Shown here: positions 15,983-32,905 of the stretch, one piece after another
Layout: every line of letters starts with the position of its first letter
Position numbering within the stretch: the first letter of the stretch is position 1
NCBI RefSeq assembly: GCF_014836555.1
Contig: NZ_JACSQQ010000008.1
Location: 25,912 to 76,902, forward strand
DNA: 50,991 bases
Direction: 5' to 3'
Source: Oerskovia rustica
Lineage (GTDB): Bacteria; Actinomycetota; Actinomycetes; Actinomycetales; Cellulomonadaceae
Program-made: the position numbers and the translations under genes
The notes under the pieces: generated by a model
What the model was told of the DNA's origin: nothing
The model's input: only the letters and a program-made list of their open reading frames with translations
The model's database searches: none

Positions 15983-16013
15983 AAGCGTGCAGCACGACGA
16001 CAGTGAGGAAGCG

Positions 16014-17688: not shown

Positions 17689-17824
17689 CGTCGGAGCCTT
17701 CTTCCGTGCCCGTGCCCGGCGCACGCGAGGGCCTGCCGGACACTTCCAGCCTAGGCCGAGCGGGAACGCTCCGCCAGGGTGCCGGCCCTGCCCGGCCGGC
17801 CCCTCGCAGGCTCGCCCGTCGGGC

Positions 17825-18922
17825 CTACCGCGCCGTGAACCCCTTGGCCCGGCGGGCGTCGGCGGGCCCCCAGAGGTCGGTCTTGACCTCGGCCCTGACC
17901 AGCGGCACGACCTCCTCCGCGAACCGGCGCAGCACGTCGTCCTGCCGGGCGGGCTCCAGGAGGTGGTTGATCGAGACCGACTGGAGGTCGTGCCCGTAGC
18001 TCTGGTGGTAGTCGAGGATCTTCTCGGCCACGCGCTCGGGAGAACCCACGAGGGCGGGGCCGCGCTCGACGGCCTCCTCGATGGTCCGGAAGCTCGTGAC
18101 CTTGCCGACCGCGGACGGGTCGTGCTTGCGCAGGTCCGCGCGCGCGACCGCGCCCTCGTAGATGGGCCGGAACTCCTCGATCGCCTGCTCGGTGGTGTCG
18201 GCGAGGAAGAGCCCGCCGGACCCCGACCCGACGAACCCGTACGCCGGGTCGTGCCCTGCGGCCGCGTACTGCTCGCGGTAGTGGTCGATCAGCACCTGGT
18301 AGCTCTCGCGGGGCTGGAGCGCGTTGGCGCTCACGATCGGGTCGCCCCACCTCGCGGCGAGCTCGACCGCGAACCGCGAGGTCGCGGACCCGTGCCAGAT
18401 CCGGAACGCGCCGTCGTACGGGCGGGGCAGGGTCGTGGCGCCTCGCAGGTCCGGGCGGTGGCGGCCCTCCCAGTCGACCTCCTCGCCGCTCAGGAGCAGA
18501 CGGAGCAGCTCGTAGTTCTCCTCGAGGTACTCGTACTGCTTCGCGAGGTCGAGGCCCAGCAGCGGGTACTGGAGGGCCTCGTTGCCCTTGCCGATGACCA
18601 TCTCGAACCGGCCCCGGCTGAGCTGGTCGATCGTCGCGTAGTCCTCGGCGACGCGGATCGGGTCGAGCAGGGACAGCACCGTCACGCCCGTGCTCAGCAG
18701 GATGCGCGACGTCCGGGCGGCGATCGCCCCGAGGATCACCGTCGGCGCCGAGGACAGCACGTCCCCCGCGTGCCGCTCCCCGACCGCGAACGCGTCGAGG
18801 CCGAGCTCCTCCGCCAGGACCGCTGTCTCGACGACCCGCTCGAGCCGGTCGGCCGCGGGGACCGCCTCGCCCGTGACGGGATGGGGCGGGTTGAAGACGA
18901 TGTCGAGGACCTGAAAACGCAC
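17825..18922 (-). CDS. LLM-class flavin-dependent monooxygenase
   Basis: A 365-residue luciferase-like TIM-barrel protein, GTG start at 18922 after AAGGAG. LLM features: AEELGLDAFAVGERHAGD, SRILLSTGVTVLSLLDPIRVAEDYATIDQLSRGRFEMVIGKG, and a C-terminal VGSPERVAEKILDYHQSYGHD. The GERH sequence near residue 48 places it in the bacterial luciferase-like branch rather than the SsuD or DszA branches. It is the distal gene of the minus-strand organosulfur cluster, separated from the SsuD-like gene by palindrome E2, so it may be transcribed partly on its own. Substrate unknown. Confidence 0.85.
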   Translation of the reverse strand: MRFQVLDIVFNPPHPVTGEAVPAADRLERVVETAVLAEELGLDAFAVGERHAGDVLSSAPTVILGAIAARTSRILLSTGVTVLSLLDPIRVAEDYATIDQLSRGRFEMVIGKGNEALQYPLLGLDLAKQYEYLEENYELLRLLLSGEEVDWEGRHRPDLRGATTLPRPYDGAFRIWHGSATSRFAVELAARWGDPIVSANALQPRESYQVLIDHYREQYAAAGHDPAYGFVGSGSGGLFLADTTEQAIEEFRPIYEGAVARADLRKHDPSAVGKVTSFRTIEEAVERGPALVGSPERVAEKILDYHQSYGHDLQSVSINHLLEPARQDDVLRRFAEEVVPLVRAEVKTDLWGPADARRAKGFTAR

Positions 18923-18953
18923 GGTGAGGGCTCCTTCTGGGGTGGGGGACGGT

Positions 18954-19023
18954 GCCGAGGCAGAGGGTTGGCGTCGAGGTAGAGGGCTCCGGACCTCTAC
19001 CTCGACCAGAGCCCTCTACCTCG
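18954..19023. repeat. Intergenic palindrome E2 (GAGGTAGAGGG type)
   Basis: Perfect 15-base arms at 18975-18989 (CGAGGTAGAGGGCTC) and 19009-19023 (GAGCCCTCTACCTCG). The loop holds another inverted copy, CCTCTACCTCG, and the left flank holds a direct copy GAGGCAGAGGG. The left edge reads GGTGCCGA, then GGTTGGCGTCGAG, and the centre TCCGGAC, framing sequences shared with E5 at 49.96 kb. It lies between two LLM genes and may end or attenuate transcription. Confidence 0.85.
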
Positions 19024-19052
19024 CGGAGGGGGTGGAGAGTGGGGAGCGGGGT

Positions 19053-20168
19053 TCAGGCCGCCTGGGTCTGCGCGGCCTCGGCGTCGCGCTTGGCGACCTC
19101 CTCGCGCACGATCGGGATGACGTAGCGGCCGAAGTCGGTCGCGTCGTCGAGCAGGTCGTAGCCACGAGCCGAGATGATGCGGACGCCCAGGTCGTAGTAC
19201 GCGAGCAGGGCCTGCGCGACGGTCTCGGGCGTCCCGACGAGCGCGTTCGAGTTGCCCGCTCCCCCGGTGGCCCTCGCCGTCGCGGTCCACAGGGCCGTGT
19301 CGTACCGGTCGCCCTGCGCCGCGATCTCCAGGAGGCGCTGCGAGCCCGCGTTCTCGGGCTTGTCGATCGGGTGGCGACGGCTCAGCACGCCCCCGGCCGC
19401 GGCCTTGCGCTCCTCGATCCGGTCGAGCACGCGGTGGGCCTTCTCCCAGGCGAGCTCCTCGGTGGCTCCGATGATCGGGCGGAACGCGGCGTGGATGCGC
19501 GGCGGCGTCTGCCGACCGGCGGCAGCGGCCTCGGCATGTACGCGCTGGATCTGCTCGGCCGTGCGGTCCAGCGGCTCGCCCCACACCGCGTAGATGTCGG
19601 CCTCGGCCGCACCGACCCGGAACGCCGCGTCGGAGGAGCCGCCGAACGAGATGGTCGGCGTGCGCCCCTCGAAGGGCTTGGCGTCCAGCACGAAGTCGTC
19701 GAGGTCGTAGAACGTCCCGTGGTGGTCGAACGGCTCGGCGCTCGACCACGCCCTCTTGACGATCTGGATGTACTCGTGGGTGCGGGCGTAGCGCTCGTCC
19801 TTGGTCAGGGTGTCTCCCTCTCGCCCCTGCTCGTGGTCGTTGCCGCCCGTGATGAAGTGGACCGACAGCCGCCCTTCGGAGAGCTGGTCGAGCGTCGCGA
19901 AGGACTTGGCTGCGAACGTCGGGTAGGAGACGTTGGGGCGGTGCGCCAGCAGCAGCTCGACCGTGTCGAGGCGGGCCGCGGTCCAGGCCGCGAGCGCCGA
20001 CGGCTCGGGGCCGCTCGACCCGTAGGCGAACAGGACGCGGGTCCAGCCGTTGTCCTCGTGGGCGCGCACGAGGCGCTCGAGGTACTGCTTGTCGAAGGGG
20101 GCGGTCGTGCGGGCGGTGGTCTCGGAGGCGTCGCTCGTGGTGGCGATGCCGAGGAACTCGACGGGCAT
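19053..20168 (-). CDS. ssuD: Alkanesulfonate monooxygenase-like LLM protein (SsuD family)
   Basis: A 371-residue FMNH2-dependent monooxygenase predicted to split a sulfonate into aldehyde plus sulfite. The pattern matches SsuD along its length: VELLLAHRPNVSYPTFAAKSFATLDQLSEGRLSVHFITGG, DEQ-like GREGDTLTKDERYARTHEYIQIVKRAW, ISFGGSSDAAFRVGAAEADIYAVWGEPLDR, and ALVGTPETVAQALLAYYDLGVRIISARGYD. It needs reduced flavin from a partner such as the SsuE-like reductase at 16.0 kb. The start MPVEFLG at 20168 follows GGAGAACACC. Flanked on both sides by palindromes (E2, E3). Confidence 0.85.
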   Translation of the reverse strand: MPVEFLGIATTSDASETTARTTAPFDKQYLERLVRAHEDNGWTRVLFAYGSSGPEPSALAAWTAARLDTVELLLAHRPNVSYPTFAAKSFATLDQLSEGRLSVHFITGGNDHEQGREGDTLTKDERYARTHEYIQIVKRAWSSAEPFDHHGTFYDLDDFVLDAKPFEGRTPTISFGGSSDAAFRVGAAEADIYAVWGEPLDRTAEQIQRVHAEAAAAGRQTPPRIHAAFRPIIGATEELAWEKAHRVLDRIEERKAAAGGVLSRRHPIDKPENAGSQRLLEIAAQGDRYDTALWTATARATGGAGNSNALVGTPETVAQALLAYYDLGVRIISARGYDLLDDATDFGRYVIPIVREEVAKRDAEAAQTQAA

Positions 20169-20216
20169 GGTGTTCTCCGTGGGTGGGGTGGTGGGGTCGT
20201 TCGATGGGTGGCCTGA

Positions 20217-20300
20217 TGCCGAGGTAGACCCGTCCGCGCGAGGTAGACCCGCGTGTGTGCGCCCAGGGGTCTACCTCGCGCCGGGGGGTCTACCTCGGCA
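20217..20300. repeat. Intergenic palindrome E3 (GAGGTAGACCC type)
   Basis: Four copies of GAGGTAGACCC: direct at 20221-20231 and 20240-20250, inverted at 20267-20277 and 20286-20296. They make two nested perfect 15-base stems: 20217-20231 with 20286-20300, and 20236-20250 with 20267-20281. The distal inverted copy supplies the last codons and TAG stop of the GNAT gene that ends at 20290. Confidence 0.9.
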
Positions 20301-20928
20301 GCAGGGGTGGCGGGGCCGGCGCCGGGGTGAGGTCGAGGCCGTACGCGTGCAGCCGGCCGCCGCCCTCCCCCTCGATCACGCGGGTCTCGCGCTCGGGCAG
20401 GCGCCGGAACCCGAGCGCCTCGTAGAGCCGGTGCGCGCGGGTCATCTGCGGGCCGGAGTTCATGACGACCCGCTGCACCCCCTGGGCGCGGGCCACGTCG
20501 AGGACGTGCCGCGTGAGCACGGCCCCGATCCCCCGCCCCCGGGCAGCGGGCGCGACGCCGAGCAGCCGGAAGTCGAGCTCGCCGTCGAGGGCCAGGGGCG
20601 AGATGTGCCGGCCGGGCAGCGGCGTCGCGACCGTCCCGAGCAGCGCGCCGGTCTCGTCGTCGACCGCGACCCACACGTCGTGCTCGGCCGCGCGGGTCGC
20701 GACGTCGCGCAGCACGGCCCGGTACGAGTCCGAGATCGAGTACTCGTGCCCGTACGCCGCGTCGAGCAGGTCGGCGACGGCTTCGTACTCGGCGGGGGTC
20801 ACGAGCCGCACGGTCACCCCGGCCCCCTCCCGGGGCGACCCCGCTCCCCGGTGGGTGTGCTCGCCCGGGCGAGCGGCGCCGTCGGGCGGGCTGTCCGCGC
20901 GCGGGCGCGACGTGGTGGGGGCGCTCAT
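20290..20928 (-). CDS. GNAT family N-acetyltransferase
   Basis: A 212-residue acetyl-CoA-dependent acetyltransferase. After a 38-residue polar tail the fold is clear: VRLVTPAEYEAVADLLDAAYG, DDETGALLGTVATPLPG, and the acetyl-CoA loop LLGVAPAARGRGIGAVLTRHVLDVA, then MTRAHRLYEALGFRRLP. Start at 20928 overlaps the rhodanese stop (ATGA). The C-terminal codons ...LPR-stop lie within palindrome E3. In a sulfur cluster, a GNAT acting on an S-substituted cysteine is plausible by analogy with Bacillus S-alkyl-cysteine salvage; detoxifying acetylation of another amine is the alternative. Confidence 0.85.
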   Translation of the reverse strand: MSAPTTSRPRADSPPDGAARPGEHTHRGAGSPREGAGVTVRLVTPAEYEAVADLLDAAYGHEYSISDSYRAVLRDVATRAAEHDVWVAVDDETGALLGTVATPLPGRHISPLALDGELDFRLLGVAPAARGRGIGAVLTRHVLDVARAQGVQRVVMNSGPQMTRAHRLYEALGFRRLPERETRVIEGEGGGRLHAYGLDLTPAPAPPPLLPR

Positions 20929-21314
20929 GCGCGCTGCCGGACGGGCTCGTGCGGGCCCGACGGCGCCGCTCCCGTCCCCGGCTCGGCCGGGAGTCCCGCG
21001 TCGCGCCAGGCGGGGAAGCCGCCCTCGACGTGCGTGACGTTCGTGTAGCCGCGTGCCGCGAGGGCCTCGGCGACGGGGCCCGAGCCCCGCTCGGAGCCGC
21101 AGACCACGACGACCGGGGTGTCGAGCGACACCGCAGGGGCGGAGGCGGAGCCGAAGATCGCGTCGAGGTCGTCGCGGTCGGTGACCGTGGCGCCGGGGAT
21201 CGTGCCGGCGGTCGCGCGGCCGCCCTCGCTGCGGACGTCGATCAGGAAGGCCCCGTCGGCGACGCGGGCTCCCGCGTCGCTGGCCGGGGTGAGGAGGGGC
21301 TGGGGCTGGGTCAT
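20925..21314 (-). CDS. Rhodanese-like domain protein
   Basis: A 129-residue single-domain rhodanese. FLIDVRSEGGRATAGTIPGA is the CH2A-like start, and the active loop VVVVCGSERGSGPVAEAL has the catalytic Cys at about residue 72. TNVTHVEGGFPAWRDAGLP is the typical end. Rhodaneses move sulfane sulfur to acceptors such as cyanide, thiols or sulfite. Within this cluster it may handle sulfur released by the monooxygenases. Overlaps the GNAT gene by four bases. The last 15 residues are a Pro/Gly tail carrying one copy of the GGCGCCGTCGGGC motif. Confidence 0.88.
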   Translation of the reverse strand: MTQPQPLLTPASDAGARVADGAFLIDVRSEGGRATAGTIPGATVTDRDDLDAIFGSASAPAVSLDTPVVVVCGSERGSGPVAEALAARGYTNVTHVEGGFPAWRDAGLPAEPGTGAAPSGPHEPVRQRA

Positions 21315-21341
21315 GTCGTCTCCTGGGTGTGGTGGGTGGCG

Positions 21342-21378
21342 GGTGCCGAGGCAGAGGGGTGGCGTCCTCTACCTCGCG
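21342..21378. repeat. Intergenic palindrome E4 (short GAGGCAGAGG type)
   Basis: GGTGCCGAGGCAGAGG, then GGTGGCGTC, then CCTCTACCTCGCGAGG. It has one direct and one inverted copy of the motif and looks like E2 with its middle deleted. The inverted copy contains the TAG stop (21369-21371) of the adjacent LLM gene. Confidence 0.8.
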
Positions 21379-22658
21379 AGGGCGGGTTCGCGGGCGGCCG
21401 CGACGCCCGGCCGGGCCGCGTCGGTCGGCAGCAGGCCCCAGTGCCGGGCAAGCAGGTCGAACGAGCGGGCCCGGTCGGCGGGGTCGTGGGCGGCGGTCGT
21501 GATGACGATCTCGTCGGCCGCGGTCACGCGCGCCAGGGTCTCGAGGCGTTCGACGACGGTCTCGGGCGACCCGACGAACCGCGTGTCGACCCGGTCCTGG
21601 ACCGCGGCCCGGTCGGCGTCCGACAGGTCCTCCCACGCCGGCGACGTGCCGGGCGCCGGGTAGGCGATCGCGCCGCCGGCCCCGCGACGGATCGACAGGA
21701 CCCAGGCCGTGAACGGCTCGCCGATCCGGCGGGCCTCGTCGTCGGTGTCCGCGACGAGGACGTCGGCCGAGACCACGACGTACGGGCGGTCGAGCACGCC
21801 CGGGCGGAACGCCGCCCGGTACGCCGCGATCGTGTCGAGCGTCGCGGACGGGCCCACGTGGTAGTTCGCGGCGAGCGGCAGGCCGAGCTCGCCCGCGACA
21901 CGTGCGCTGACCCCACCGCTCGACGCGAGGACGAACAGGTCGAACGCCGCACCCTCGACGGGAGGGCTCGTCCACCCGGTGCCCGCGCCGTCGGTGAACG
22001 TCCCGGCGCGCAGCCCGAGGACCAGCTCGAGCTCAGCACGGAACTCCCCCGGGGTCCGGCTCGCGCCCACGACCTCCTTCTGTGCGAGCAGCCGCTCACG
22101 CAGCGCCGAGTCGGAGAGGTCGACGCCCGGCGCGGCGGGGACCAGGAGCCCGTCGACCACGCGCATCCCGGCCGGCCGGGCGGGGGCGGGCGGGACCGGC
22201 GGTGCGGCCGGTGCCTCTCCCGTGCCCGACGGCGGAGCCTCGCCACTCGCGCTCTTCCCGCCCTTCGCGGGGGGCGGGGTGAAGGCCCGGCCCAGGCCCA
22301 GGTCCACGCGCCCCGGGTGCAGGGCCGCGACGGTCCCGAACTGCTCGGCCGCGATCAGCGGGCTCGTCGTGCTCAGCAGCACGGCCCCCGACCCGACGCG
22401 GATGCGCGACGTGCGCTCCGCGACGAGGGCCGCGAGGACCGCGGGGGACGCCGACGCGACGCCGGGCGACAGGTGGTGCTCGGCGAACCAGATGCGACGG
22501 TAGCCGAGGGCGTCCGCCCGGACCGCGGTGTCGAGGGTGTCGCGCAGTGCCTGCGCCCCCGTCGACCCCTCGCTCACGACGGCGAGGTCGAGGATCGACA
22601 GCGGGACCCGGGTCGGGGGCGAGGACTGAGGGACGGTCGGCTGGTCGGAGGTGGTCAT
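21369..22658 (-). CDS. LLM-class flavin-dependent monooxygenase with a Pro/Ala-rich insert
   Basis: A 429-residue luciferase-like protein. Start at 22658 (MTTSDQPTVPQSS) has GAGGACC upstream. LLM hallmarks: LDLAVVSEGSTGAQALRDTLDTAVRADALGYRRIWFAEHH, RIRVGSGAVLLSTTSPLIAAEQFGTVAALHPGRVDLGLGRA, and FVGSPETVVERLETLARVTAADEIVITTAAHDP. An insertion of about 40 residues (about 132-172) rich in Pro, Ala and Gly interrupts the barrel; close relatives usually lack so long a linker. The GAQAL/WFAEHH pattern belongs to the MsnO8-like/luciferase-like branch. Coupled with a nitroreductase just upstream. Substrate unknown. Its stop codon lies in palindrome E4. Confidence 0.85.
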   Translation of the reverse strand: MTTSDQPTVPQSSPPTRVPLSILDLAVVSEGSTGAQALRDTLDTAVRADALGYRRIWFAEHHLSPGVASASPAVLAALVAERTSRIRVGSGAVLLSTTSPLIAAEQFGTVAALHPGRVDLGLGRAFTPPPAKGGKSASGEAPPSGTGEAPAAPPVPPAPARPAGMRVVDGLLVPAAPGVDLSDSALRERLLAQKEVVGASRTPGEFRAELELVLGLRAGTFTDGAGTGWTSPPVEGAAFDLFVLASSGGVSARVAGELGLPLAANYHVGPSATLDTIAAYRAAFRPGVLDRPYVVVSADVLVADTDDEARRIGEPFTAWVLSIRRGAGGAIAYPAPGTSPAWEDLSDADRAAVQDRVDTRFVGSPETVVERLETLARVTAADEIVITTAAHDPADRARSFDLLARHWGLLPTDAARPGVAAAREPALAR

Positions 22659-22711
22659 CGGAAGGTCCTCTGCGAGTCGGTGGGGGCGCTGGGTGCGGGA
22701 CGAGAGACGGG

Positions 22712-23596
22712 TCAGCGGGACGGCAGGCCGCGGGCCGCGAGCGCCGAGTGCAGGTGCGCGTGCCCGCGCTGGGGGCCGGGGATCGCGAGCCGGTCGACCA
22801 CGCGGCGCCGCCAGCTCTCCGTGAGGCCCTCGTCGCGGTAGAACGGCGCGATGACGTCCTCGTAGGCGTCGACGTGCTCGGCCTGGGCGTCGAGGTCGTA
22901 GGTCTCCTGGTGCAGCACGGCGGCCTGCGGCAGGCGCGGCTTGACCCGCTCGCCTCCCGCGGGGTCCGGGTGCCCGACGACGAGGCCCACCACCGCGACG
23001 GTGCCCTCGGGCAGGCCGAGCTCGCCCGCGACCTGCTCGGGGTGGTGGCGCAGCGCGCCGATGTACACGGTCCCGAGCCCCAGCGACTCCGCGGCGACGA
23101 CGGCGTTCTGCGCGGCGAGCGCCGCGTCGACGAACGCCACGACCGTCGAGTCCAGGTAGTCGGTCCCCTCGAGCGAGGTGCCGTGCGCCGCGCCGATCGC
23201 GCGGGCACGCGCCAGGTCCGCGACCCACACGAGCAGGAGCGGTGCCTGCCGGATGTGCTCCTGACCGCCCGCGAGCGCCGCGAGCCGGTCCTTGCGCTCC
23301 AGGTCGGTGACCGCGACGACGCTCCAGAACTGCATGTTGGACGACGTCGGGGCGGACTGCGCGGCCGCGACGAGCGTCGGCAGGACCGTCTCGTCGAGCG
23401 GGTCGGGCAGGTAGGCGCGTACCGTGCGGTGCCGCAGGATCCCGTCGATCGCCGCGGTGGGCGGAGCGAGGGGGACGGACTGGTCGGGGCCGTAGCGCTC
23501 GGTCAGGGGCGAGGCCTCCGCGGGTGCGGCCTCGGAGGGAGCGGGGTCGGCGGGCGTGGTCTCGGCGAGGGCGGCGAGGTCGGTCGTGGTCGACAT
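22712..23596 (-). CDS. Nitroreductase-family NADPH:FMN oxidoreductase (NfsA/FRP-like)
   Basis: A 294-residue FMN enzyme. Core motifs: IDGILRHRTVRAYLPDPLDETVLPTLVAAAQSAPTSSNMQFWSVVAV (FMN contacts HRTVR and SAPTSSNMQ), QAPLLLVWVADLARA, AAESLGLGTVYIGALRHHPE and VVGLVVGHPDP. These match the flavin reductase P (FRP/NfsA) group, which can donate FMNH2 to luciferase-like oxygenases. The C-terminal LPQAAVLHQETYD fits the same group. A low-complexity Pro/Ala/Glu stretch precedes the domain (about 13-35). It sits directly upstream of an LLM gene, a natural oxygenase-reductase pair. Confidence 0.87.
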   Translation of the reverse strand: MSTTTDLAALAETTPADPAPSEAAPAEASPLTERYGPDQSVPLAPPTAAIDGILRHRTVRAYLPDPLDETVLPTLVAAAQSAPTSSNMQFWSVVAVTDLERKDRLAALAGGQEHIRQAPLLLVWVADLARARAIGAAHGTSLEGTDYLDSTVVAFVDAALAAQNAVVAAESLGLGTVYIGALRHHPEQVAGELGLPEGTVAVVGLVVGHPDPAGGERVKPRLPQAAVLHQETYDLDAQAEHVDAYEDVIAPFYRDEGLTESWRRRVVDRLAIPGPQRGHAHLHSALAARGLPSR

Positions 23597-23656
23597 GGTG
23601 GCCTTTCGATGGGTCGGAGCGGATCGAGGTGGTGGGTGTCGCAGGCGGTCTGCCGG

Positions 23657-24850
23657 TCAGCCCGCCCGGCCGGGGACCTGCGCCACGGGTCCTCGCGCGA
23701 AACGGGCCAGGGAGAACAGGCGGTCTGCGGCCTCGGGCGACGCGTCCGGGTCCTCGCGCGCCAGCTCGGCCAGGACGCGCCCGATCGACGGCGCGAACTT
23801 GAACCCGTGCCCCGAGAACCCCGCGGCGATCACGACGCGGCCCACGCGGTCGAGCACGAAGTCGTGGTCCGGGGTCGTGGTGTACGTGCACGAGACGGGC
23901 ACGAACCGGTCGGCGTCGGCGCCCGGCACCCACGTCCGGACGTAGTCCTGGAGCTGGGCGAGCTGCCCCGGCTCGGGACGGAAGGTCCGCCGGTCGGGGT
24001 CCGTGCGGGGGCCGACGCCGTGGAACCCGACCTTGATCCCCTCCCCCGGGGTCGCGAGCCCGTAGACGCCGCTGGGCCACGCGTGCGGCTCGGCGGGGGC
24101 GTGCGTGAACGCCGGCCAGGTGCCCTCCGCCGGCGCACCCAGGGCGAGCGCGAAGTGGGCGGGCTGCTCCTGGGTGACGACGAGGGACGGGAGGGGCGCG
24201 GCGCCGTCGGGCTCGGGGAACGCCTCCCCCAGCAGGCCCGCGCTCCACGCACCCACGGCGACCACGACCGTGCCTGCGACCAGGTCCCCCCGGTCCGTGA
24301 CGACACGCACCGAGCCCGTACCCGGGTGGACGTGGCGGACGTGCACGCCGTGGCGGACGTCGGCACCGTGCGCGCGGGCCGCGGACTGGAAGGCTGCGAC
24401 CGCGCGGTCGGCGTGGACGCGCCCGGCCGTCGCGGTCTCGTGCAGGACGTCGCCCTCGAAACGCAGGCCCGGCCAGCGGTCGGCGGCCTCCTCGGGGCGC
24501 AGCCACTCGTGCGGGATGCCCCGCGCGGCGAGGGCGTCCCCGATCTCGGTGCGCCGCGGGACACCGTGGCTCACACCTCCCGTCAGCGTGAGGACGGCGT
24601 CCGCGCGCAGGCCGGCGTCACGCTCGAGCTCGCGCCACAGGCCGAACGCCTCCTGCGCGAGGTCGAGGTACGCGGGCTGGGAGTACGTCGTGCGGTAGAT
24701 GCGCGACGCGCCGTGCGAGGCGCCGTTCGCGTGGCCGGGCTCGAAACGTTCGAGCAGGACGACGTCGTGCCCTGCGCGCGCGAGCTGCCACGCCGCGGCA
24801 GACCCCATGACGCCGCCGCCGACGACGACGTGCGACACGTGCTCGGTCAT
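23657..24850 (-). CDS. SolA-like FAD-dependent amino acid oxidase (monomeric sarcosine/N-methyltryptophan oxidase family)
   Basis: A 397-residue flavoprotein of the DAO superfamily. N-terminal FAD site VVVGGGVMGSAAAWQLARAGHDVVLLERF; then HANGASHGASRIYRTTYSQPAYLDLA, the hallmark of the MSOX/SolA group, with covalent FAD expected on the Cys of SCTYTTTPDHDFVLDR (near residue 321) and GFSGHGFKFAPSIG near the end. Members oxidise N-methyl amino acids such as sarcosine, releasing H2O2. In this cluster it could process an N-methylated or secondary-amine sulfur amino acid; this is inference. Start ATG at 24850, preceded by GAGAGAGG. Confidence 0.88.
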   Translation of the reverse strand: MTEHVSHVVVGGGVMGSAAAWQLARAGHDVVLLERFEPGHANGASHGASRIYRTTYSQPAYLDLAQEAFGLWRELERDAGLRADAVLTLTGGVSHGVPRRTEIGDALAARGIPHEWLRPEEAADRWPGLRFEGDVLHETATAGRVHADRAVAAFQSAARAHGADVRHGVHVRHVHPGTGSVRVVTDRGDLVAGTVVVAVGAWSAGLLGEAFPEPDGAAPLPSLVVTQEQPAHFALALGAPAEGTWPAFTHAPAEPHAWPSGVYGLATPGEGIKVGFHGVGPRTDPDRRTFRPEPGQLAQLQDYVRTWVPGADADRFVPVSCTYTTTPDHDFVLDRVGRVVIAAGFSGHGFKFAPSIGRVLAELAREDPDASPEAADRLFSLARFARGPVAQVPGRAG

Positions 24851-24874
24851 GCTGGCTGCCTCTCTCGGGGTGGT

Positions 24875-24923
24875 CCGGCACTCACGGACGGTGGGCCGGT
24901 GCTCACGGAAGGTGGCCGGTGCC
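24875..24923. repeat. 20-21-bp imperfect tandem repeat
   Basis: Two units beginning CCGG (24875-24895, 24896-24915), each containing CTCACGGA and GGTGG, with a third partial start CCGGTGC. Located between the SolA-like gene and the binding-protein gene. No function is apparent. Confidence 0.6.
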
Positions 24924-24973
24924 GCCGGCCCGCGGGTCCCAGGAGGAGCCCCGCAGGCCGGGCGGCCGTCCGG

Positions 24974-26035: not shown

Positions 26036-26109
26036 CGTGTTCTCTTTCGTGGTGGGTGGGAGTGCGGTGGGGCGGGTGACGCGGACCGGGCAGCAGACGT
26101 GCCGTGGCG

Positions 26110-26921
<812 letters not shown>

Positions 26922-26925
<4 letters not shown>

Positions 26926-28070
26926 GCGGCACCTCCGGGGTGGCGGTCGGTCGCCCCGGTGCGGGTCAGGTGACCGCGCCCGACGGCGGCGCGCGCCGCG
27001 TAGGCGGGGGGCAGGTGGGCGGGCGCGGGGCGTCCGGTGATCCGGGACCACGCGACCTGGAGCGTCCACCGGACACGCTGGACCGGGGTCGGGGGCAGCG
27101 TGCGGACGGCGCCCTTGGCGTAGTGCCGCTCGACGTAGTACTGCGCGATCGTCAGGACCGTCGTGATGATCAGGTACCAGATGGCCGCGACCATGAGCAG
27201 CGGGACGACGCGCTGGTTGCGGCCGTAGATGACGCCGATCGTGTAGAACAGCTCGCCGTACGCGAGGACGTACACGACCGAGGTCCCCTTGACGAGGCCG
27301 ATGATCTCGTTGACCGACGTCGGCACGATGGTCCGCATGGCCTGCGGCAGCACGATGCGCAGCGTCTGGCGCGAGCGTGGGATGCCCAGGGAGGCCGCGG
27401 CCTCGTGCTGGCCCTGGTCGACCGAGAGGATCCCGGCGCGCACGATCTCCGAGGAGTAGGCGGCCTGCGACAGGCCCAGGCCCAGGATCGCGGCACCGAA
27501 CTTGTCGATCACGTCGAGCGTCCCGAACTCCAGGAACCCGGGGCCGAACGGGATGCCGAGCGAGAGCGTCGGGTACAGGTAGGCCAGGTTGTACCAGAGC
27601 AGGAGCTGCAGGATCAGCGGCACCGAGCGGAACACCCACGTGTACGCCGACGACACGGCCTGGAGCAGCGGCGACCGGGACAGGCGCATGAGCGCGAGGA
27701 CCGTCCCGAGCCCGAACCCGATGACCGCGGCGACCGCCGTCAACCGGATGGTCCCCCACAGCCCGCCCAGGACCGAGGGCCACGTCAGGTACTGCGCGAC
27801 GACCGACCACTCCCACTTGGGGTTGGTCACGAGCGAGCTGACGACCATCGCGAGCAGGACCGCGACGAACGCGGTCGCGACCCAGCGGCCCGGGTGTCGA
27901 GCGGGGACGACCTTGAGGTCCTCCCAGCGCGGGGTGGCCTCGTCGGGAGTGGTGGGCCCGTCGACGACGGACCGGTCGGTGGTGGCGGTGGCGCCCGGTG
28001 GGTCGGGCAGGGACCCGGGGGGTGGGGCGAGCTGGCGCGACTCGTCCTGCGGGAGGGAGAGGGTGCTCAT
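26922..28070 (-). CDS. Polar amino acid ABC transporter permease (HisM/TcyB type)
   Basis: A 382-residue membrane protein, longer than the usual 220-330 because of a roughly 60-residue cytoplasmic N-terminal tail and a basic C-terminal tail. Helices start near residue 63 ([20 protein letters not shown]). [30 protein letters not shown] and [21 protein letters not shown] are the HisM-family start, and the EAA loop is [29 protein letters not shown] single permease gene implies a homodimeric pore. A nested hairpin (28117-28162) lies between it and the upstream GNAT gene. Confidence 0.92.
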
Positions 28071-28116
28071 GGTGGACCTCGGTGGGAGAAGGGCGGTGGG
28101 AGTGGGCTGGACCTGC

Positions 28117-28162
28117 CGTGTCAGAGCGAGCGTGACCTCGGGGTCACGCCGGTTCTGACACG
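28117..28162. terminator. Nested double hairpin between GNAT and importer genes
   Basis: Outer perfect arms CGTGTCAGA/TCTGACACG (28117-28125, 28154-28162) enclose inner perfect arms GCGTGACC/GGTCACGC (28130-28137, 28142-28149) around TCGG. It covers the GNAT stop codon (28144-28146). It may be a terminator or an RNA-processing structure that lowers expression of the importer relative to the upstream genes. Confidence 0.6.
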
Positions 28163-28755
28163 TGCGGACAGAGCCACTTCTCGAACGCCAGAGGGCCGAT
28201 CTCCTCGGGGTCGCGCGTCACGTCGAACAGCGGGGTGTATCCCGCGCTGAGGTACAGGCCTGCGGCCTCGGGCTGGCGCGGCCCGGTCGTCAGGTAGATC
28301 CGGGGGTAGCCTCGCTCGGCCGCGCGGTGCTCGAGCTCGCCGAGGACCTGTCGGGCGAGCCCGCGCCGCCGGTGGGCCGAGTGGGTCCAGATGCGCTTGA
28401 GCTCGGCGGTCGCGACGAGGGGGACGCCGTCGTCGGAGTGCGTGGCGCCCTGCGCGTGGGGCCCGGAGCCGGGCCGGGTCCGGCGCGCGGGCTCGCCGAC
28501 CTCGGGTTCTGCCCGACGGCGGAACGCACCACCCGCGACCGGCTCGCCGTCCGCGAGGAGCAGCACGAGGTCGCCGTGCGGGGCCGCGAAGTCGGCCGCC
28601 GGGTAGTGCTCCATCTCGGCGCGCAGGTCGTCCTCGTCGAGGAGGCTGCGGTAGCGCGAGGCGTACTCGTGCGCGAGCTCGTCGAGCAGCGGGCGCACGA
28701 GAGGGTCGTGCAGGTGCACGGAGCGGATCGTGACCGCCGTCGTGGGCGCGCTCAT
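28144..28755 (-). CDS. GNAT family N-acetyltransferase
   Basis: A 203-residue acetyltransferase, start at 28755 overlapping the DUF1684 stop (ATGA). After a helix-rich N-terminal half (LLDELAHEYASRYRSLLDEDDLRAEMEHYP), AELKRIWTHSAHRRRGLARQVLGELEHRAAERGYPRIYLTTGPRQPEAAGLYLSAGYTPL is a complete GNAT acetyl-CoA site (RRRGLA loop) and C-terminal strand. Bacillus S-alkyl-cysteine salvage operons encode a GNAT beside an amino acid importer and LLM oxygenases, as here. The substrate is not shown by sequence. Confidence 0.88.
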   Translation of the reverse strand: MSAPTTAVTIRSVHLHDPLVRPLLDELAHEYASRYRSLLDEDDLRAEMEHYPAADFAAPHGDLVLLLADGEPVAGGAFRRRAEPEVGEPARRTRPGSGPHAQGATHSDDGVPLVATAELKRIWTHSAHRRRGLARQVLGELEHRAAERGYPRIYLTTGPRQPEAAGLYLSAGYTPLFDVTRDPEEIGPLAFEKWLCPHVSEPA

Positions 28756-29723
28756 CGCGGCACCTTCTCCCCCGCCTCGACCGAGAACGGCAGGACGTTG
28801 CCCTCGACCGGGCGCGGGCACGTGCCGAAGTCGGTGAACGCGTAGGGCAGGTTGAGCGTGCGGTTCAGGTCGAGCCGCAGCGTCCGGGCGGCGTCCTGCC
28901 CGGCCGCGCGCTCGTCCTCGGACACCTCGACCTCGTCGGTCGCCTCGGCCTTGTCGGAGGCTGCGGCGCGGTCGACGAACAGCACACGCCAGTCTGCGAC
29001 GCCGGGGGCCGGGTCGGTGAACAGCAGGCTCGCGCCACCGCCCGGCGTGCCCGTGAGCCGCAGGGTCGTCGTCAGGCCGTCGCGCGTGACGTCGACCTCG
29101 CCCACGACCTGCACGTGGTGCTCCAGTCCGGGCTGCGCGCCGCCCACGACCTCCGCGACCGGCTCGTCATACCAGCGGACAGGTGCGTCGAGGACCCACG
29201 ACGGGTCGTAGGCGAAGGTCGGGACACCCTCGAACGTGACCCGGGTGCGGGCCCGGGGGTCACGCACGCGCAGCCCGTAGCGCCCGGTGCGCCGCACGAG
29301 CTCGACCGCGACCGGAGAGGCCGGGTCGGCGCCGTCGGGCACGAAGGTCGCGACGAACGTCGACGCACCCTCCGCGACGTCCTGGACGTGCGTGCCGCGC
29401 AGCGCGTCCTGGCCGCCGGCCGGGACGATCGCGTCGGCCGCCGCGGCGCGCAGGTGCACGCCGTCCGCGTCCGACCACCACTCGCCGGGCAGGCCCGGGA
29501 AGGACGTCGGGGACTCCGGGACCCAGTGCAGCGACGTGAGGGTGAGCCAGCCGTGCTGCTCGCGCAGGGTGCGCTCGCGCTCGGCGTGCCACGCCGACCA
29601 CACGGCCGCGGCGGCACTCGGCGCCGAGCCGCCGGACGGCTCGACGGGCGTGCCCGTGGGTGCGGACGCCGTGTGGCGGCCGCGCGTGGTGACGCCTGCC
29701 GGGGACGTGGTGCTCGTCGTCAT
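28752..29723 (-). CDS. DUF1684 domain protein
   Basis: A 323-residue cytoplasmic protein of unknown function. The DUF1684 signature is clear in both halves: WSAWHAERERTLREQHGWLTLTSLHWV near the N-terminus, and LNRTLNLPYAFTDFGTCPRPVEGNVLPFSVEAGEK at the C-terminus, where conserved Tyr, Cys, Pro and Asn residues line the presumed pocket. Length fits the family. It overlaps the downstream GNAT by four bases and follows the LLM gene at 29.8 kb, so it is part of the sulfur transcription unit. No reaction is established for the family; a hydrolytic or binding role on the imported sulfur compound would be inference. Start ATG at 29723 after GAAGGAGC. Confidence 0.82.
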   Translation of the reverse strand: MTTSTTSPAGVTTRGRHTASAPTGTPVEPSGGSAPSAAAAVWSAWHAERERTLREQHGWLTLTSLHWVPESPTSFPGLPGEWWSDADGVHLRAAAADAIVPAGGQDALRGTHVQDVAEGASTFVATFVPDGADPASPVAVELVRRTGRYGLRVRDPRARTRVTFEGVPTFAYDPSWVLDAPVRWYDEPVAEVVGGAQPGLEHHVQVVGEVDVTRDGLTTTLRLTGTPGGGASLLFTDPAPGVADWRVLFVDRAAASDKAEATDEVEVSEDERAAGQDAARTLRLDLNRTLNLPYAFTDFGTCPRPVEGNVLPFSVEAGEKVPR

Positions 29724-29786
29724 GATGCTCCTTCGGGGCTGGTGGTCGGGCGGTGGTCGGGCAGGTGGTCGGGCTGTCGAGCCGGG

Positions 29787-31202
29787 TCAGCGCGACGGGG
29801 CGGCGGACGCGGCGCTCGCGGTGGTCCCCGCACCCACCTCGGGGCGCGAGAGCCCGAGGTGGTCGCGGAGCGTCGTGCCCGTGTACTCGGTGCGGAACGA
29901 GCCGCGTTCCTGGAGCAGCGGCACGACCTGGTCGAGCACGTCGTCGAGGCCCGTGGGCGTCAGGTGCGGCACGAGGATGAAGCCGTCCGACGCGTCCTCC
30001 TGCACGTGGCGGTCGATGTCGTCGGCGACCTGCTGGGCCGTGCCGACGAACCCGCCGCGGCCGGACACCTCGATCACGAGGTCCCGGATGGACCAGCCGT
30101 TGGCTGCGGCCTTCTCGCGCCACGCCTTGACGACGGGCGCCGGATCCTTGATGTGCCGGACGCGGCCGCGCGTGATGTTCAGGTGGTCGAGGTCGGGCTC
30201 GACGTCGGGCAGCGGCCCCTCGGGGTCGTACGCCGTGAGGTCCCGCCCCCAGACCTGCTCGAGGAACGCGATCGCCGTCCGACCCGGGACCTGCTGGAGC
30301 CGGATCTCCCGCGCACGCTCGGCGGCCTCCTCGGCCGTGTCCCCCAGGACGACGACCGTCGCGGGGAGGATCTTGAGCGAGTCGCGGTCGCGACCGTGGG
30401 CCGCGAGGCGGGACTTCACGTCGGCGTAGAACGCCTGACCGTCCTCGAACGCGGAGTGCGCCGAGAAGACGACGTCGGCCGTCGCCGCCGCGAAGTCGCG
30501 CCCGTCGGCAGAGTCGCCCGCCTGGAACAGGACGGGGTGCCCCTGAGGCCCGCGCGGGGTCTCGAACCGGCCGGACACGTCGAAGTGCTTGCCCTGGTGC
30601 GCGAACGGACGCACGGACCCCGTCCGCACGAGCTCGTCCTCGTCCACGGCCTCGCCGTCCCACGAGTCCCACAGCTGCCGGGCCAGGGCGACGAGCTCGC
30701 CCGCGCGCTCGTACCGTTCCTCGTAGGGCAGGAAGCCGCCGCGGCGGAAGTTCGCTCCCGTGAAGGCGTCGGGGCTCGTGACCAGGTTCCAGGCTGCACG
30801 CCCCCCGGACAGGAGGTCGAGCGTCGCGAACTGGCGGGCCAGCTCGTAGGGCTCGTTGAACGTCGTGTTGACCGTGCCCGCGAGGCCCAGGCGGTCGGTG
30901 ACCGCGGCGAGCGCGGCCAGGACCGGGAGCGTGTCGGGGCGGCCGACGACGTCGAGGTCGTGGATCTGCCCCTTGTGCTCTCGCAGCCGCAGGCCTTCGG
31001 CGAGGAAGAAGAAGTCGAGCTTCGCGGCCTCGGCCCGGCGCGCGAGGTGCTCGAACGAGCTGAACTCGATCTGGCTGCGCGAGGCCGGGTCGCTCCACAC
31101 GGTCGTGTTGTTGACGCCCGGGAAGTGGGCGCCCAGGTGGATCTGCTTGCGGGGCCGGCCGTCGTGCGAGCGGTCCGACGAGGCGGGGGTGGGGTGCGTC
31201 AT
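29787..31202 (-). CDS. NtaA/SnaA/DszA-type FMNH2-dependent monooxygenase
   Basis: A 471-residue LLM oxygenase of the long NtaA/DszA branch. Marks: IHLGAHFPGVNNTTVWSDPASRSQIEFSSFEHLARRAEAAKLDFFFLAEGLRL, then GTVNTTFNEPYELARQFATLDLLSGGRAAWNLVTSPDAFTGANFRRGGFLPYEERYERAGE, and HPVLFQAGDSADGRDFAAATADVVFSAH. Relatives oxidise sulfones, nitrilotriacetate or N-acetyl-S-alkyl-cysteines (Bacillus YxeK/CmoJ group). The C-terminus FRTEYTGTTLRDHLGLSRPEV is shared with the other two DszA-type enzymes here, at 31.2 and 39.0 kb. Start MTHPTP at 31202 after TGAGGACC, 12 bases from the upstream gene. Confidence 0.88.
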   Translation of the reverse strand: MTHPTPASSDRSHDGRPRKQIHLGAHFPGVNNTTVWSDPASRSQIEFSSFEHLARRAEAAKLDFFFLAEGLRLREHKGQIHDLDVVGRPDTLPVLAALAAVTDRLGLAGTVNTTFNEPYELARQFATLDLLSGGRAAWNLVTSPDAFTGANFRRGGFLPYEERYERAGELVALARQLWDSWDGEAVDEDELVRTGSVRPFAHQGKHFDVSGRFETPRGPQGHPVLFQAGDSADGRDFAAATADVVFSAHSAFEDGQAFYADVKSRLAAHGRDRDSLKILPATVVVLGDTAEEAAERAREIRLQQVPGRTAIAFLEQVWGRDLTAYDPEGPLPDVEPDLDHLNITRGRVRHIKDPAPVVKAWREKAAANGWSIRDLVIEVSGRGGFVGTAQQVADDIDRHVQEDASDGFILVPHLTPTGLDDVLDQVVPLLQERGSFRTEYTGTTLRDHLGLSRPEVGAGTTASAASAAPSR

Positions 31203-31214
31203 GGTGGCGGGTCC

Positions 31215-32483
31215 TCAGGCGATCGCGGCGGCGTAGCGGTTGGCGGGGTGTGCGAGCCCCAGGGTGTCCCGCAGGGTCGTGCCCGGGTAGGTCGACCGGA
31301 AGACGCGGGCCTCCTGGAGCAGCGGCACGACGCCGTCGACCAGCGCGTCGAGGTCCGTGCGCAGCGAGGACGGACGGATCGTGAACCCGTCCGCGGCGCC
31401 CGCCTCGAACCACTCCTCGACGACCTCCGCGAGGTCGCGGGCCGTGCCCACGTGCGTGAGCGAGTCGGTGTCCCACGTGACGCCCTCGAGCCCTTCGAGC
31501 AGGTCGAGCCGCGCCTGGGCGCTGGCCCGGTCCTGCCCGATCACGGCGTAGAGGTCGACCAGGACGCGCAGCTCGTCGGGGTCACGGCCCGCCTCGGCGG
31601 CCGCGGCGCGCACCTGGTCGCGCAGCGCCTTGGCCGCGTCGAGCGTCGTGGCCCGCACCCGCACGACGTCGGCGCGGCGGCCCGCGAGGGCCAGCGCCTC
31701 CACGGAGTCCCCGCGCACCACGACCGGCGGCTGCGCCTGGGGCGAGCGGGGCGTGATCGAAGGGCCCTTCACGGCGAACCGGACGCCGTCGTAGTCGACG
31801 TAGTGCACCTTGTCGCGGTCGATGAACCGCCCCGAGGGGACGTCGCGGATCTCGGCGTCGTCCTCCCAGCTGTCCCAGAGGCGGCTCACGACCTCGATCG
31901 CCTCCTCGGCCTCGGCGACCGCGTCCGCGGTGCCCTGGACCTCCTTGCGCCCGAACAGCGCCGCGGCGGCCTCGCTCGTCGACCAGCCCACCTGCCACGC
32001 GGCGCGGCCCGAGCTCACGTGGTCGATCGTCGCGATCGCCTTGGAGACGTGGAAGGGCTCGGTGTGCGTCGTGTCGACGGTCGCGACGAGGCCGATCCCC
32101 GTCGAGCGGGGGGCGAGGCGCGAGGCCACGAGGGCCGCGTCGAGCCGACCGCGGAGCGTCGTGTTGCGCGTGGGCTGGAGCGAGAACGTGTCGTCGAACA
32201 GCGCGAAGTCGAGCACGCCGCGCTCGGCGGTCGCGACGAGCTCCTGGAGCCGGTGCGCGTCGAACAGGCGCGGCGACTGCGAGCCCACGGCCCGCCACGC
32301 ACCCGCTCGCGCTCCGGCGTCGGACAGGTCGACGCCGAGGTGCACCGAGCGGCGTGGTCGCTCGTCGAGCAGGTCGTCGATGCCGGCGAGCACGTCGAGG
32401 TCGTCCTCGACGGACCGGGACGCGGACTGCTCGTCGGGCTGGGAGGTGGGGGCGAACAGCGGCGTCAGGTTCGAGTCAGGCAT
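31215..32483 (-). CDS. NtaA/SnaA/DszA-type FMNH2-dependent monooxygenase
   Basis: A 422-residue LLM oxygenase, first gene of the minus-strand sulfur unit. ATG at 32483 (MPDSNLTP) is preferred, with CCGGAG about 11 bases upstream; a GTG at 32495 would overlap that site. LLM core: RGVLDFALFDDTFSLQPTRNTTLRGRLDAALVASRLAPRSTGIGLVATVDTTHTEPFHVSKAIATIDHVSSGRAAWQVGWSTSEAAAALFGRKE, then QAQPPVVVRGDSVEALALAGRRADVVRVRA. Its C-terminus FRSTYPGTTLRDTLGLAHP aligns with the 29.8-kb enzyme, so the two look like old duplicates that have diverged strongly. It begins 230 bases after a cysteine-codon leader peptide. Substrate unknown. Confidence 0.87.
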   Translation of the reverse strand: MPDSNLTPLFAPTSQPDEQSASRSVEDDLDVLAGIDDLLDERPRRSVHLGVDLSDAGARAGAWRAVGSQSPRLFDAHRLQELVATAERGVLDFALFDDTFSLQPTRNTTLRGRLDAALVASRLAPRSTGIGLVATVDTTHTEPFHVSKAIATIDHVSSGRAAWQVGWSTSEAAAALFGRKEVQGTADAVAEAEEAIEVVSRLWDSWEDDAEIRDVPSGRFIDRDKVHYVDYDGVRFAVKGPSITPRSPQAQPPVVVRGDSVEALALAGRRADVVRVRATTLDAAKALRDQVRAAAAEAGRDPDELRVLVDLYAVIGQDRASAQARLDLLEGLEGVTWDTDSLTHVGTARDLAEVVEEWFEAGAADGFTIRPSSLRTDLDALVDGVVPLLQEARVFRSTYPGTTLRDTLGLAHPANRYAAAIA

Positions 32484-32713
32484 GGGTCGTTCCACTCCGG
32501 GAGGTCGGGTGCGGGGTCGCTCGGCCGCCGCCGCAGGGGTCGGCGGGCGGCCGCGACGGGTCGCGAGAACTGGGGTGCAGCGGGTGGACCGCCGGGCGCG
32601 GTGGCGGGTGGCGTGGCTCGCCGCAGATCGGCATGCCGCGGCGACCCGTTCACGGGCGGGGCGGTTCAGGGACGAGCCGGTGCGGCTCGGGAGGCGTCAG
32701 GAGGAGCGCAGGC

Positions 32714-32815
32714 TCAACAACAGACGCGGCCCGGGACGACGGGGCGCCCGGGGGAACAACACGTTCGACGTGCGGGACCGGCGGGGGACGCGGCGAGCGT
32801 GACGCTGGTGTCCAC
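32714..32815 (-). CDS. Cysteine-codon leader peptide of the minus-strand sulfur operon
   Basis: A 33-residue peptide with GTG start at 32815, just after a strong GGAGGAGG ribosome site. Cys pairs occur at residues 19-20 (RRTCCSPGR) and at the very end (PGRVCC-stop). All four Cys codons are TGT, although TGC would be expected at this GC content. It is 55 bases from a consensus promoter and 230 bases before the first LLM gene. This is the layout of actinobacterial cysteine-attenuation leaders: ribosomes stalling on Cys codons when cysteine is scarce would expose the downstream operon. A small hairpin (CGAGCC/GGCTCG, about 32673-32689) follows the stop. Otherwise 32484-32713 shows nothing I recognise. 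Confidence 0.75.
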   Translation of the reverse strand: MDTSVTLAASPAGPARRTCCSPGRPVVPGRVCC

Positions 32816-32876
32816 GGGTCCTCCTCCGGTCGTCGGTGCGTGGGTGCGGCGGACGGGGTGTCTGCCGATGGCCCGG

Positions 32877-32905
32877 AATGTATGCCTGGGCACCGGGCGT
32901 GTCAA
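32877..32905 (-). promoter_or_regulatory. Consensus promoter of the minus-strand sulfur operon
   Basis: TTGACA (32900-32905), 17 bases, TACATT (32877-32882) on the minus strand: the best sigma-70-type promoter in the window. It predicts a start near 32870 and a 55-base leader before the cysteine peptide. Confidence 0.8.

What the first reader, a model, noticed from the sequence alone, without database searches (positions are those of the whole stretch)
17825..32815. Minus-strand cluster resembles S-alkyl-cysteine salvage but lacks the deacetylase
Seen: GNAT acetyltransferases, an amino-acid-type importer, several LLM oxygenases, a rhodanese, a nitroreductase, a SolA-like oxidase and DUF1684, largely co-directional from one promoter. 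Established: the Bacillus ytm/yxe operons pair a GNAT, a cystine-type importer and LLM oxygenases to release cysteine from S-alkyl or S-succino-cysteines through N-acetylation, oxidation and deacetylation by an M20 peptidase. Here no M20 enzyme is visible. DUF1684 or SolA-like chemistry might replace that step, which would make this a variant pathway.
Basis: partly seen in the sequence, partly recalled or inferred. Interest (0 to 1): 0.75.

Follow-up and report, generated by a model that had tools for sequence, protein, structure and literature searches.

The report
Cysteine-controlled sulfur-scavenging operon in Oerskovia
A 14-gene operon, apparently switched on when cysteine runs short, looks built to import organic sulfur compounds and cut the sulfur free; the enzyme thought to be missing is not in the operon, but a relative of it is encoded elsewhere in the same genome.

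Summary
In detail: 14 co-directional minus-strand genes (17825-32483) follow one sigma-70-like promoter and a 33-codon cysteine leader ORF (32714-32815). They encode five LLM monooxygenases, a cystine-type importer, two GNATs, DUF1684, a SolA-like oxidase, a nitroreductase and a rhodanese; no M20. The leader, with tandem Cys codons, is conserved in the genus; a similar one precedes the sulfite-reductase/PAPS-reductase/CysD/CysN genes. Cysteine-responsive sulfur scavenging is well supported by sequence; S-alkyl-cysteine as substrate is plausible but unproven.

DUF1684 or SolA replacing the deacetylase is not supported. The genome encodes a YxeP-like M20D elsewhere (orthologs in 147 of 150 family genomes searched). 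In 65 related clusters M20 was found twice, both with DUF1684; 23 lack both. DUF1684 matches only its own family.

New: LLM_A looks degenerate. The FMN-binding Arg-Tyr pair is in 43 of 43 LLM_B but 0 of 35 LLM_A sequences, and the two are usually neighbours, suggesting a LuxAB-like heteromer. DUF1684 is often directly followed by GNAT1 (29 of 57), mostly with a 4-base overlap. Verdict: new variant of a known kind.

The parts
32877..32905 (-). sigma-70-like promoter TTGACA-17-TACATT
   Evidence: only such site found in 15500-33500; 0.1 expected
32714..32815 (-). cysteine leader ORF, 33 codons plus stop, two Cys-Cys pairs, all four Cys codons TGT, AGGAGG ribosome site
   Evidence: found in the 5 genus relatives fetched; TGT is 4 of 49 Cys codons in the called window genes
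31215..32483 (-). LLM_A: NtaA-type luciferase-like protein lacking the FMN-binding Arg-Tyr pair and a ~70-residue insertion; probable non-catalytic partner
29787..31202 (-). LLM_B: NtaA-type monooxygenase with the Arg-Tyr pair; best PDB matches NTA monooxygenase, YtnJ, DszA/BdsA
28752..29723 (-). DUF1684 protein
28144..28755 (-). GNAT1 acetyltransferase, overlaps DUF1684 by 4 bases
26922..28070 (-). ABC permease, best NCBIfam match cystine permease (128.5 bits, cut-off 300)
26110..26925 (-). ABC ATPase, best NCBIfam match TcyN (317.6 bits, cut-off 406)
24974..26035 (-). amino-acid-type substrate-binding protein
23657..24850 (-). SolA/monomeric sarcosine oxidase-like FAD oxidase
22712..23596 (-). 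nitroreductase (best NCBIfam match an oxygen-insensitive NADPH nitroreductase, below cut-off), possible flavin reductase for the LLMs
21369..22658 (-). LLM, MsnO8 family (TIGR03558, 277.7 bits, cut-off 166.95)
20925..21314 (-). rhodanese-domain protein
20290..20928 (-). GNAT2 acetyltransferase
19053..20168 (-). LLM, SsuD/SfnG-like (below cut-offs)
17825..18922 (-). LLM, CE1758-like (below cut-off)
15884..15993 (+). SAM-IV riboswitch before a divergent flavin reductase pair
   Evidence: 89.3 bits, gathering 38
16014..16643 (+). SsuE/CE1759-like FMN reductase (probable start after the riboswitch)
16640..17206 (+). flavin reductase, HsaB/HpaC/RutF-like

Best explanation
This is a cysteine-attenuated organosulfur-scavenging operon. 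When charged cysteine tRNA is short, ribosomes stall on the Cys codons of the leader and the operon is expressed (inferred). A cystine-type ABC importer brings in S-substituted cysteines or similar S-amino acids. A GNAT (GNAT1, coupled to DUF1684, or GNAT2) N-acetylates them. FMNH2-dependent LLMs, with LLM_A/LLM_B acting as a heteromer in which LLM_A is the silent partner, oxidise and cleave the S-substituent, using FMNH2 from the nitroreductase and the divergent flavin reductases. The N-acetylcysteine is deacetylated by the genome's unlinked YxeP-like M20D enzyme. The SsuD-like, MsnO8-type and CE1758-like LLMs widen the range to other C-S compounds; the rhodanese handles released sulfur. Shown here: gene content, conservation, leader ORF, loss of the Arg-Tyr pair in LLM_A, presence of the M20D. 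Inferred: all substrates, all reactions, heteromer formation, attenuation.
For: Leader: two Cys-Cys pairs, all TGT in the window, found in the 5 genus relatives fetched. A leader ending in four Cys codons precedes sulfite reductase, PAPS reductase, CysD and CysN in the same genome. A Cys-Cys short ORF was found before 24 of 111 core-gene starts and 18 of 514 control starts; its listing, split by hand, gives 21 of 35 LLM_A-led and 3 of 76 other core starts. Importer parts match cystine systems. LLM_B matches YtnJ at E 1.5e-76, next to NTA monooxygenase at 2.9e-77. GNATs of two kinds lie near LLM_A/LLM_B in other families: GNAT1-like in L140, L143, L144, FR47 type in L146, L152, L156. The FMN-binding Arg-Tyr pair is in 43 of 43 distinct LLM_B and 0 of 35 distinct LLM_A; LLM_A within two genes of LLM_B in 37 of 42. 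M20D present; redundancy of such enzymes in Bacillus: PMC12757645.
Against: LLM_B is no closer to YtnJ than to NTA monooxygenase (261 against 264 bits), so homology does not fix the substrate. GNAT1 has no close characterised relative (best PDB E 1.5e-5), and three family clusters with DUF1684 lack it (L055, L073, L135), although L055 and L135 carry another GNAT. Many LLM_A/LLM_B pairs outside the family have no GNAT or amino-acid importer recognised nearby. LLM_A keeps the BdsA Ser139 position in 29 of 35 sequences, so it is not stripped of every active-site residue. The M20D is near-universal in the family and its neighbours look like nucleoside-transport and succinate dehydrogenase genes (judged by eye, no family scan), so it may have another job. 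The importer's scores are below NCBIfam cut-offs for the cystine models. The TGYTGYTGA pattern is not enriched genome-wide (93 sites against 129 for the reversed pattern), and the leader before the sulfite reductase gene has a poor ribosome site (2-3 of 6). Leader RNA folding is not exceptional (z -1.54).
Confidence: 0.45

Rival explanations
1. A general desulfurisation operon: the LLMs act directly on sulfonates, sulfones and thioethers and release sulfite or thiols; N-acetylation is not an obligatory step and the GNATs do side jobs such as detoxifying amine products.
For: SsuD/SfnG-like and CE1758-like LLMs and an SsuE-like reductase; a second, SsuA-like importer with an NtaA/DmoA-family LLM follows at 35972-40394; LLM_A/LLM_B pairs without a recognised GNAT outside the family; three family clusters without GNAT1; Gordonia expresses LLMs of these kinds more on organosulfur compounds than on sulfate (PMC7661421, passages).
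Against: The importer is of the cystine/amino-acid type; GNAT1 directly follows DUF1684 in 29 of 57 DUF1684 genes, 24 of them with a 4-base overlap (my caller missed at least one more, in G011), so GNAT1 is a usual part in this family.
Confidence: 0.35
2. One reading: DUF1684 or the SolA-like oxidase replaces the M20 deacetylase.
For: No M20 in the operon; DUF1684 is tied to GNAT1 and LLMs; the DUF1684 alignment has invariant residues (among them Glu141, His202, Asp285 and others) that could form a site of unknown kind.
Against: A YxeP-like M20D exists in the genome and in 147 of 150 family genomes; DUF1684 and M20 coexist in both M20-bearing clusters and 23 of 65 clusters have neither; DUF1684 matches no hydrolase model (Pfam, NCBIfam); the SolA-like protein matches sarcosine oxidases.
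Confidence: 0.06
3. Salvage of peptide or low-molecular-weight-thiol S-conjugates (mercapturates, mycothiol or glutathione adducts), with the cystine-type importer joined or partly replaced by an oligopeptide-type importer in relatives.
For: Importers similar to the window's peptide-type importer stand in or beside the cluster in L045, L046, L053, L054, L055, L057 (by BLAST; SBP_bac_5 confirmed for L053); GST_C-domain proteins beside LLM_A/LLM_B in L149 and L154; an M20 directly follows the peptide-type importer in L057.
Against: The window operon itself has only the amino-acid-type importer; its peptide-type importer at 7352-12946 lies apart.
Confidence: 0.14

Closest known systems
Bacillus subtilis scm (yxe) and ytn/yha S-alkylcysteine clusters
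   Same: GNAT, FMN-dependent monooxygenase and (scm) a three-part ABC importer in one cluster, for recovery of cysteine (PMC9706529, PMC12757645)
   Different: no M20 in the cluster; five LLMs, one lacking the Arg-Tyr pair; DUF1684, SolA-like oxidase, rhodanese; a Cys leader ORF
Polycysteine short ORF attenuators of mycobacteria (Canestrari 2020, title seen in a reference list only)
   Same: short ORF with tandem Cys codons before sulfur genes
   Different: not leaderless here: AGGAGG site upstream, start about 60 bases after the predicted -10
NTA monooxygenase, YtnJ and DszA/BdsA (NtaA family)
   Same: LLM_B over nearly its full length; Arg-Tyr pair and Ser kept
   Different: a usual neighbour, LLM_A, without the Arg-Tyr pair
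DUF1684 (PF07920), archaeal structures 2lnu, 2lok/4dlh/4fj4
   Same: C-terminal domain, profile E 5.8e-17 and 1.5e-15
   Different: extra N-terminal part; first Cys of the Cx7C pair noted for HVO_1043 (PMC9426492, passages) is Tyr

Membership tests
Bacillus scm/ytn-type S-alkylcysteine cluster | GNAT acetyltransferase gene in the cluster | tested here: met
Bacillus scm/ytn-type S-alkylcysteine cluster | FMN-dependent monooxygenase of the ScmK/YtnJ kind | tested here: inconclusive
   NtaA-type LLMs are present but LLM_B is not closer to YtnJ than to NTA monooxygenase; ScmK itself was not compared
Bacillus scm/ytn-type S-alkylcysteine cluster | amino-acid/cystine-type ABC importer | tested here: met
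   below the cystine models' cut-offs
Bacillus scm/ytn-type S-alkylcysteine cluster | M20 N-acetylcysteine deacetylase in the cluster | tested here: not met
   the YxeP-like gene is on another contig, C22
Bacillus scm/ytn-type S-alkylcysteine cluster | growth on S-alkylcysteine needs the genes | not testable with these tools
   needs growth tests
Polycysteine leader attenuator | short ORF with tandem Cys codons before a sulfur operon | tested here: met
Polycysteine leader attenuator | leaderless start | tested here: not met
   AGGAGG upstream of the GTG; predicted -10 ends at 32877, start at 32815; the transcript start itself is not known
Polycysteine leader attenuator | cysteine-dependent change of downstream expression | not testable with these tools
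   needs a reporter assay
DUF1684 (PF07920) | Pfam gathering score | tested here: met
   86.5 bits, cut-off 25
DUF1684 thiol-relay type (HVO_1043) | Cx7C motif | tested here: not met
   Tyr in place of the first Cys; the genome's second DUF1684 (L086) has both
LuxAB-like heteromeric LLM (recalled) | one subunit with the FMN-binding residues, one without | tested here: met
   Arg-Tyr in 43 of 43 LLM_B, 0 of 35 LLM_A; two of six FMN-binding positions of BdsA give this contrast, the Ser139 position does not (29 of 35 LLM_A keep Ser), the His156 position varies in both, the other two were not examined
LuxAB-like heteromeric LLM (recalled) | physical heteromer | not testable with these tools
   inferred from gene pairing, 37 of 42

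The most novel reading that the evidence does not exclude
LLM_A/LLM_B is a LuxAB-like two-subunit monooxygenase that cleaves S-substituted cysteines, and DUF1684 with GNAT1 forms a coupled unit of new function (binding or presenting the N-acetylated S-conjugate, or an acetyl-transfer cycle that makes a separate deacetylase unnecessary). This would be a distinct actinobacterial cysteine-recycling pathway under Cys-leader control.
Probability: 0.15. Interest if true: 0.65.

Novelty: new variant of a known kind. Interest (0 to 1): 0.42.

Why it matters
It places a large, conserved actinobacterial gene set in the cysteine economy, gives DUF1684 a testable partner (GNAT1), and names a candidate pseudo-enzyme LLM subunit found in several actinobacterial families. 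It also shows that a step missing from an operon need not be missing from the cell: the YxeP-like enzyme is nearly universal in the family.

Tried and rejected

Leader RNA structure: z -1.54, not exceptional. The only Rfam match at gathering score in the window is the SAM-IV riboswitch, so none in the leader.

Using homology to fix the substrate failed: LLM_B scores NTA monooxygenase and YtnJ almost equally. Two in-cluster M20 genes were followed up. That in L135 is nearest to Xaa-Arg dipeptidase and HmrA structures, only weakly to YxeP, and has no ortholog in the window's genus (0 of 7 genus genomes at E 1e-30). That in L057 matches its family only over residues 28-276 of 423 and may be broken; I left it as it is.

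Limits of counts. M20 in the fetched loci (7 to 20 kb each) was sought with six M20 proteins of the own genome at E 1e-3; of 97 unlabelled same-strand neighbours only 9 were checked by Pfam, so a divergent deacetylase could be missed. The 65 clusters include two pairs of overlapping stretches (L052/L138, L067/L142) and second loci of the same genome; L160-L166 were left out because at least some repeat genomes already in. Gene calls came from my own composition-based caller, which missed the SDR at 32985-33761 and GNAT1 of G011 in L078 (compare). The LLM_A set holds only sequences over 40% identical to the window's, the LLM_B set only those over 58%; more distant ones were dropped before the count. 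The LLM profile was trained partly on loci counted there (L061, L064, L066, L070). For the leader regulon I used only the pattern TGYTGYTGA: 93 sites, against 129 for the reversed pattern, so the sites as a whole are not enriched. Stretches holding all 25 TGTTGTTGA and all 13 mixed sites were fetched or lie in the window, but only a few of the 55 TGCTGCTGA sites; the regulon is incomplete.

Literature: nine searches listed no paper on this operon, and one on DUF1684 (PMC9426492). One search's terms were too loose to be useful. The library is open-access only.
Full report
What is there. The window lies in a 4.35 Mb genome; the three closest named loci found with its DUF1684 protein are from Oerskovia species. 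From 32483 down to 17825 on the minus strand run 14 genes with gaps of -4 to 130 bases: LLM_A, LLM_B, DUF1684, GNAT1, ABC permease, ABC ATPase, binding protein, SolA-like oxidase, nitroreductase, MsnO8-type LLM, rhodanese, GNAT2, SsuD-like LLM, CE1758-like LLM (family scans). The only sigma-70-like promoter found in 15500-33500 lies just upstream.

Control region. Between promoter and LLM_A lies a 33-codon ORF (32714-32815) with an AGGAGG site; its peptide carries two Cys-Cys pairs, the last one directly before the stop. All four Cys codons are TGT, while TGT is 4 of 49 Cys codons in the called window genes. In the 5 genus relatives fetched the C-terminal part of the peptide is kept while the N-terminal part varies in length and sequence. 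In the same genome a short ORF ending in four Cys codons precedes genes for sulfite reductase, PAPS reductase, CysD and CysN, though its ribosome site is poor. Across the fetched loci a Cys-Cys short ORF with a fair ribosome site was found before 24 of 111 core-gene starts and 18 of 514 control starts; split by hand from the listing, 21 of 35 LLM_A-led starts and 3 of 76 others (many of these genomes are close relatives, and some of the peptides are weak candidates). The pattern TGYTGYTGA as such is not enriched in the genome (93 against 129 reversed). Control by cysteine is thus well supported by sequence; attenuation was not tested. The divergent flavin-reductase pair is preceded by a SAM-IV riboswitch, which also points to sulfur control.

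The deacetylase question. Six places in the genome match PF01546 above its cut-off; the one on C33 is nearer to M36/aminopeptidase models. One, on contig C22, belongs to TIGR01891 (305.1 bits, cut-off 153.75) and its best solved relative is B. subtilis YxeP, 1ysj, E 2e-59, residues 43-420 of 425. Matches at E 1e-90 or better are in 147 of 150 family genomes, own included, and in all 25 genera searched, including the genus member G059 that has no DUF1684 match. No Cys leader of the pattern used was found in its 16 kb neighbourhood (L080). B. subtilis uses three such enzymes redundantly for N-acetylcysteine (PMC12757645; part 1 of 6 and passages read). So the step can be supplied in trans and no replacement is needed. 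Whether this M20D acts on N-acetylcysteine is not known.

DUF1684. In 65 clusters with LLM_A, LLM_B or GNAT1, 40 have DUF1684 without M20, 2 have both, 23 have neither, none has M20 alone. This is not the inverse pattern that was used to recognise the 2SL lyase as a substitute for YxeK (PMC9706529, part 1 of 6 read). DUF1684 is directly followed by GNAT1 in 29 of 57 genes, 24 of these with a 4-base overlap (at least one more was missed by my gene caller), and two genomes have a second DUF1684-GNAT1 pair away from the cluster (L048, L134). Outside the family 8 of 16 DUF1684 loci have an LLM within three genes, against 4 of 112 genes in own-genome loci and 6 of 44 distant genes in the same loci. 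A profile finds the archaeal structures 2lnu and 2lok/4dlh/4fj4, named only as uncharacterised. A Cx7C pair proposed for a thiol relay in HVO_1043 (PMC9426492, passages) is not kept here: Tyr replaces the first Cys. Conserved polar residues exist, so an active or binding site of some kind is not excluded. The link to GNAT1 is the best lead.

The LLM pair. LLM_B matches NTA monooxygenase (264 bits), YtnJ (261) and DszA/BdsA (247) over nearly its length. In BdsA six residues are named for FMN binding, among them Arg159 and Tyr160 (PMC5819316, passages). Mapped through the LLM_A-BdsA alignment and an LLM_A-LLM_B alignment, this Arg-Tyr pair is in 43 of 43 distinct LLM_B and 0 of 35 distinct LLM_A sequences. 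LLM_A also has 15-27 residues where LLM_B has 85-89. Against a wholly dead LLM_A, 29 of 35 keep Ser at the BdsA Ser139 position; the His156 position varies in both groups. LLM_A lies within two genes of LLM_B on the same strand in 37 of 42 cases; the misses are L067, L124, L142, L155, L157, of which L067 and L142 are the same place. PDB entry 7e36 holds two different LLM chains, a possible precedent for mixed LLM complexes; LuxAB is recalled. I infer a heteromer with LLM_A as silent partner.

The rest. Among NCBIfam models the permease and ATPase match cystine systems best and the binding protein second best (its top row is a protein-kinase model), all below those models' cut-offs. The SolA-like protein matches monomeric sarcosine oxidases; residues that I recall as the covalent-FAD Cys and the oxygen-activating Lys seem kept (motif positions). 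A speculative role is oxidation of thioproline, formed from cysteine and the formaldehyde that S-demethylation releases; no call bears on this. In several relatives a peptide-type importer joins the cluster or takes the place of LLM_A/LLM_B, and elsewhere the pair sits beside FR47-type GNATs or GST_C-domain proteins. Three family clusters with DUF1684 lack GNAT1 (L055, L073, L135). Substrates may therefore differ among lineages.

Verdict. Sulfur scavenging under cysteine control: very likely (about 0.9, my judgement). S-substituted cysteines through N-acetylation with the deacetylase in trans: about 0.45. It works like the Bacillus scm/ytn clusters but is not filed as one, since the in-cluster M20 was tested and not met. 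The specific idea of DUF1684 or SolA as substitute deacetylase is unlikely (0.06).

Noticed in passing
15884-17206 (+): SAM-IV riboswitch followed by an SsuE-like FMN reductase and an HsaB/HpaC/RutF-like flavin reductase, divergent from the operon; likely FMNH2 supply for the LLMs.
   Followed up: partly
35972-41662 (+): A second organosulfur-type set: SsuA/NMT1-like binding protein, ATPase, permease, an NtaA/DmoA-family LLM (560 bits) and an MFS transporter.
   Followed up: partly
7352-12946 (-): Peptide-type ABC importer (SBP_bac_5, two permeases, two ATPases); in relatives a similar importer lies inside the sulfur cluster.
   Followed up: partly
G000:C8:688-1140 (L086): A second DUF1684 gene in the genome with the full Cx7C pair that the operon's copy lacks.
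   Followed up: partly
L057:731-2002: M20 gene behind a peptide-type importer; only residues 28-276 of 423 match its family, so the second half may be out of frame. Described only.
   Followed up: no
about 32670-32713 (-): Directly after the leader stop a CTCCTCCT stretch (changed in one of six genomes) could pair with the leader's AGGAGG site, and a GAGCCG/CGGCTC inverted repeat with a variable loop follows; seen in the alignment.
   Followed up: no
[not shown]
   Followed up: no
32985-33761 (-): Short-chain dehydrogenase upstream of the leader, same strand, beside the operon in the 5 genus relatives.
   Followed up: no
49073-49939 (+): APH-family phosphotransferase domain protein (PF01636).
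   Followed up: no
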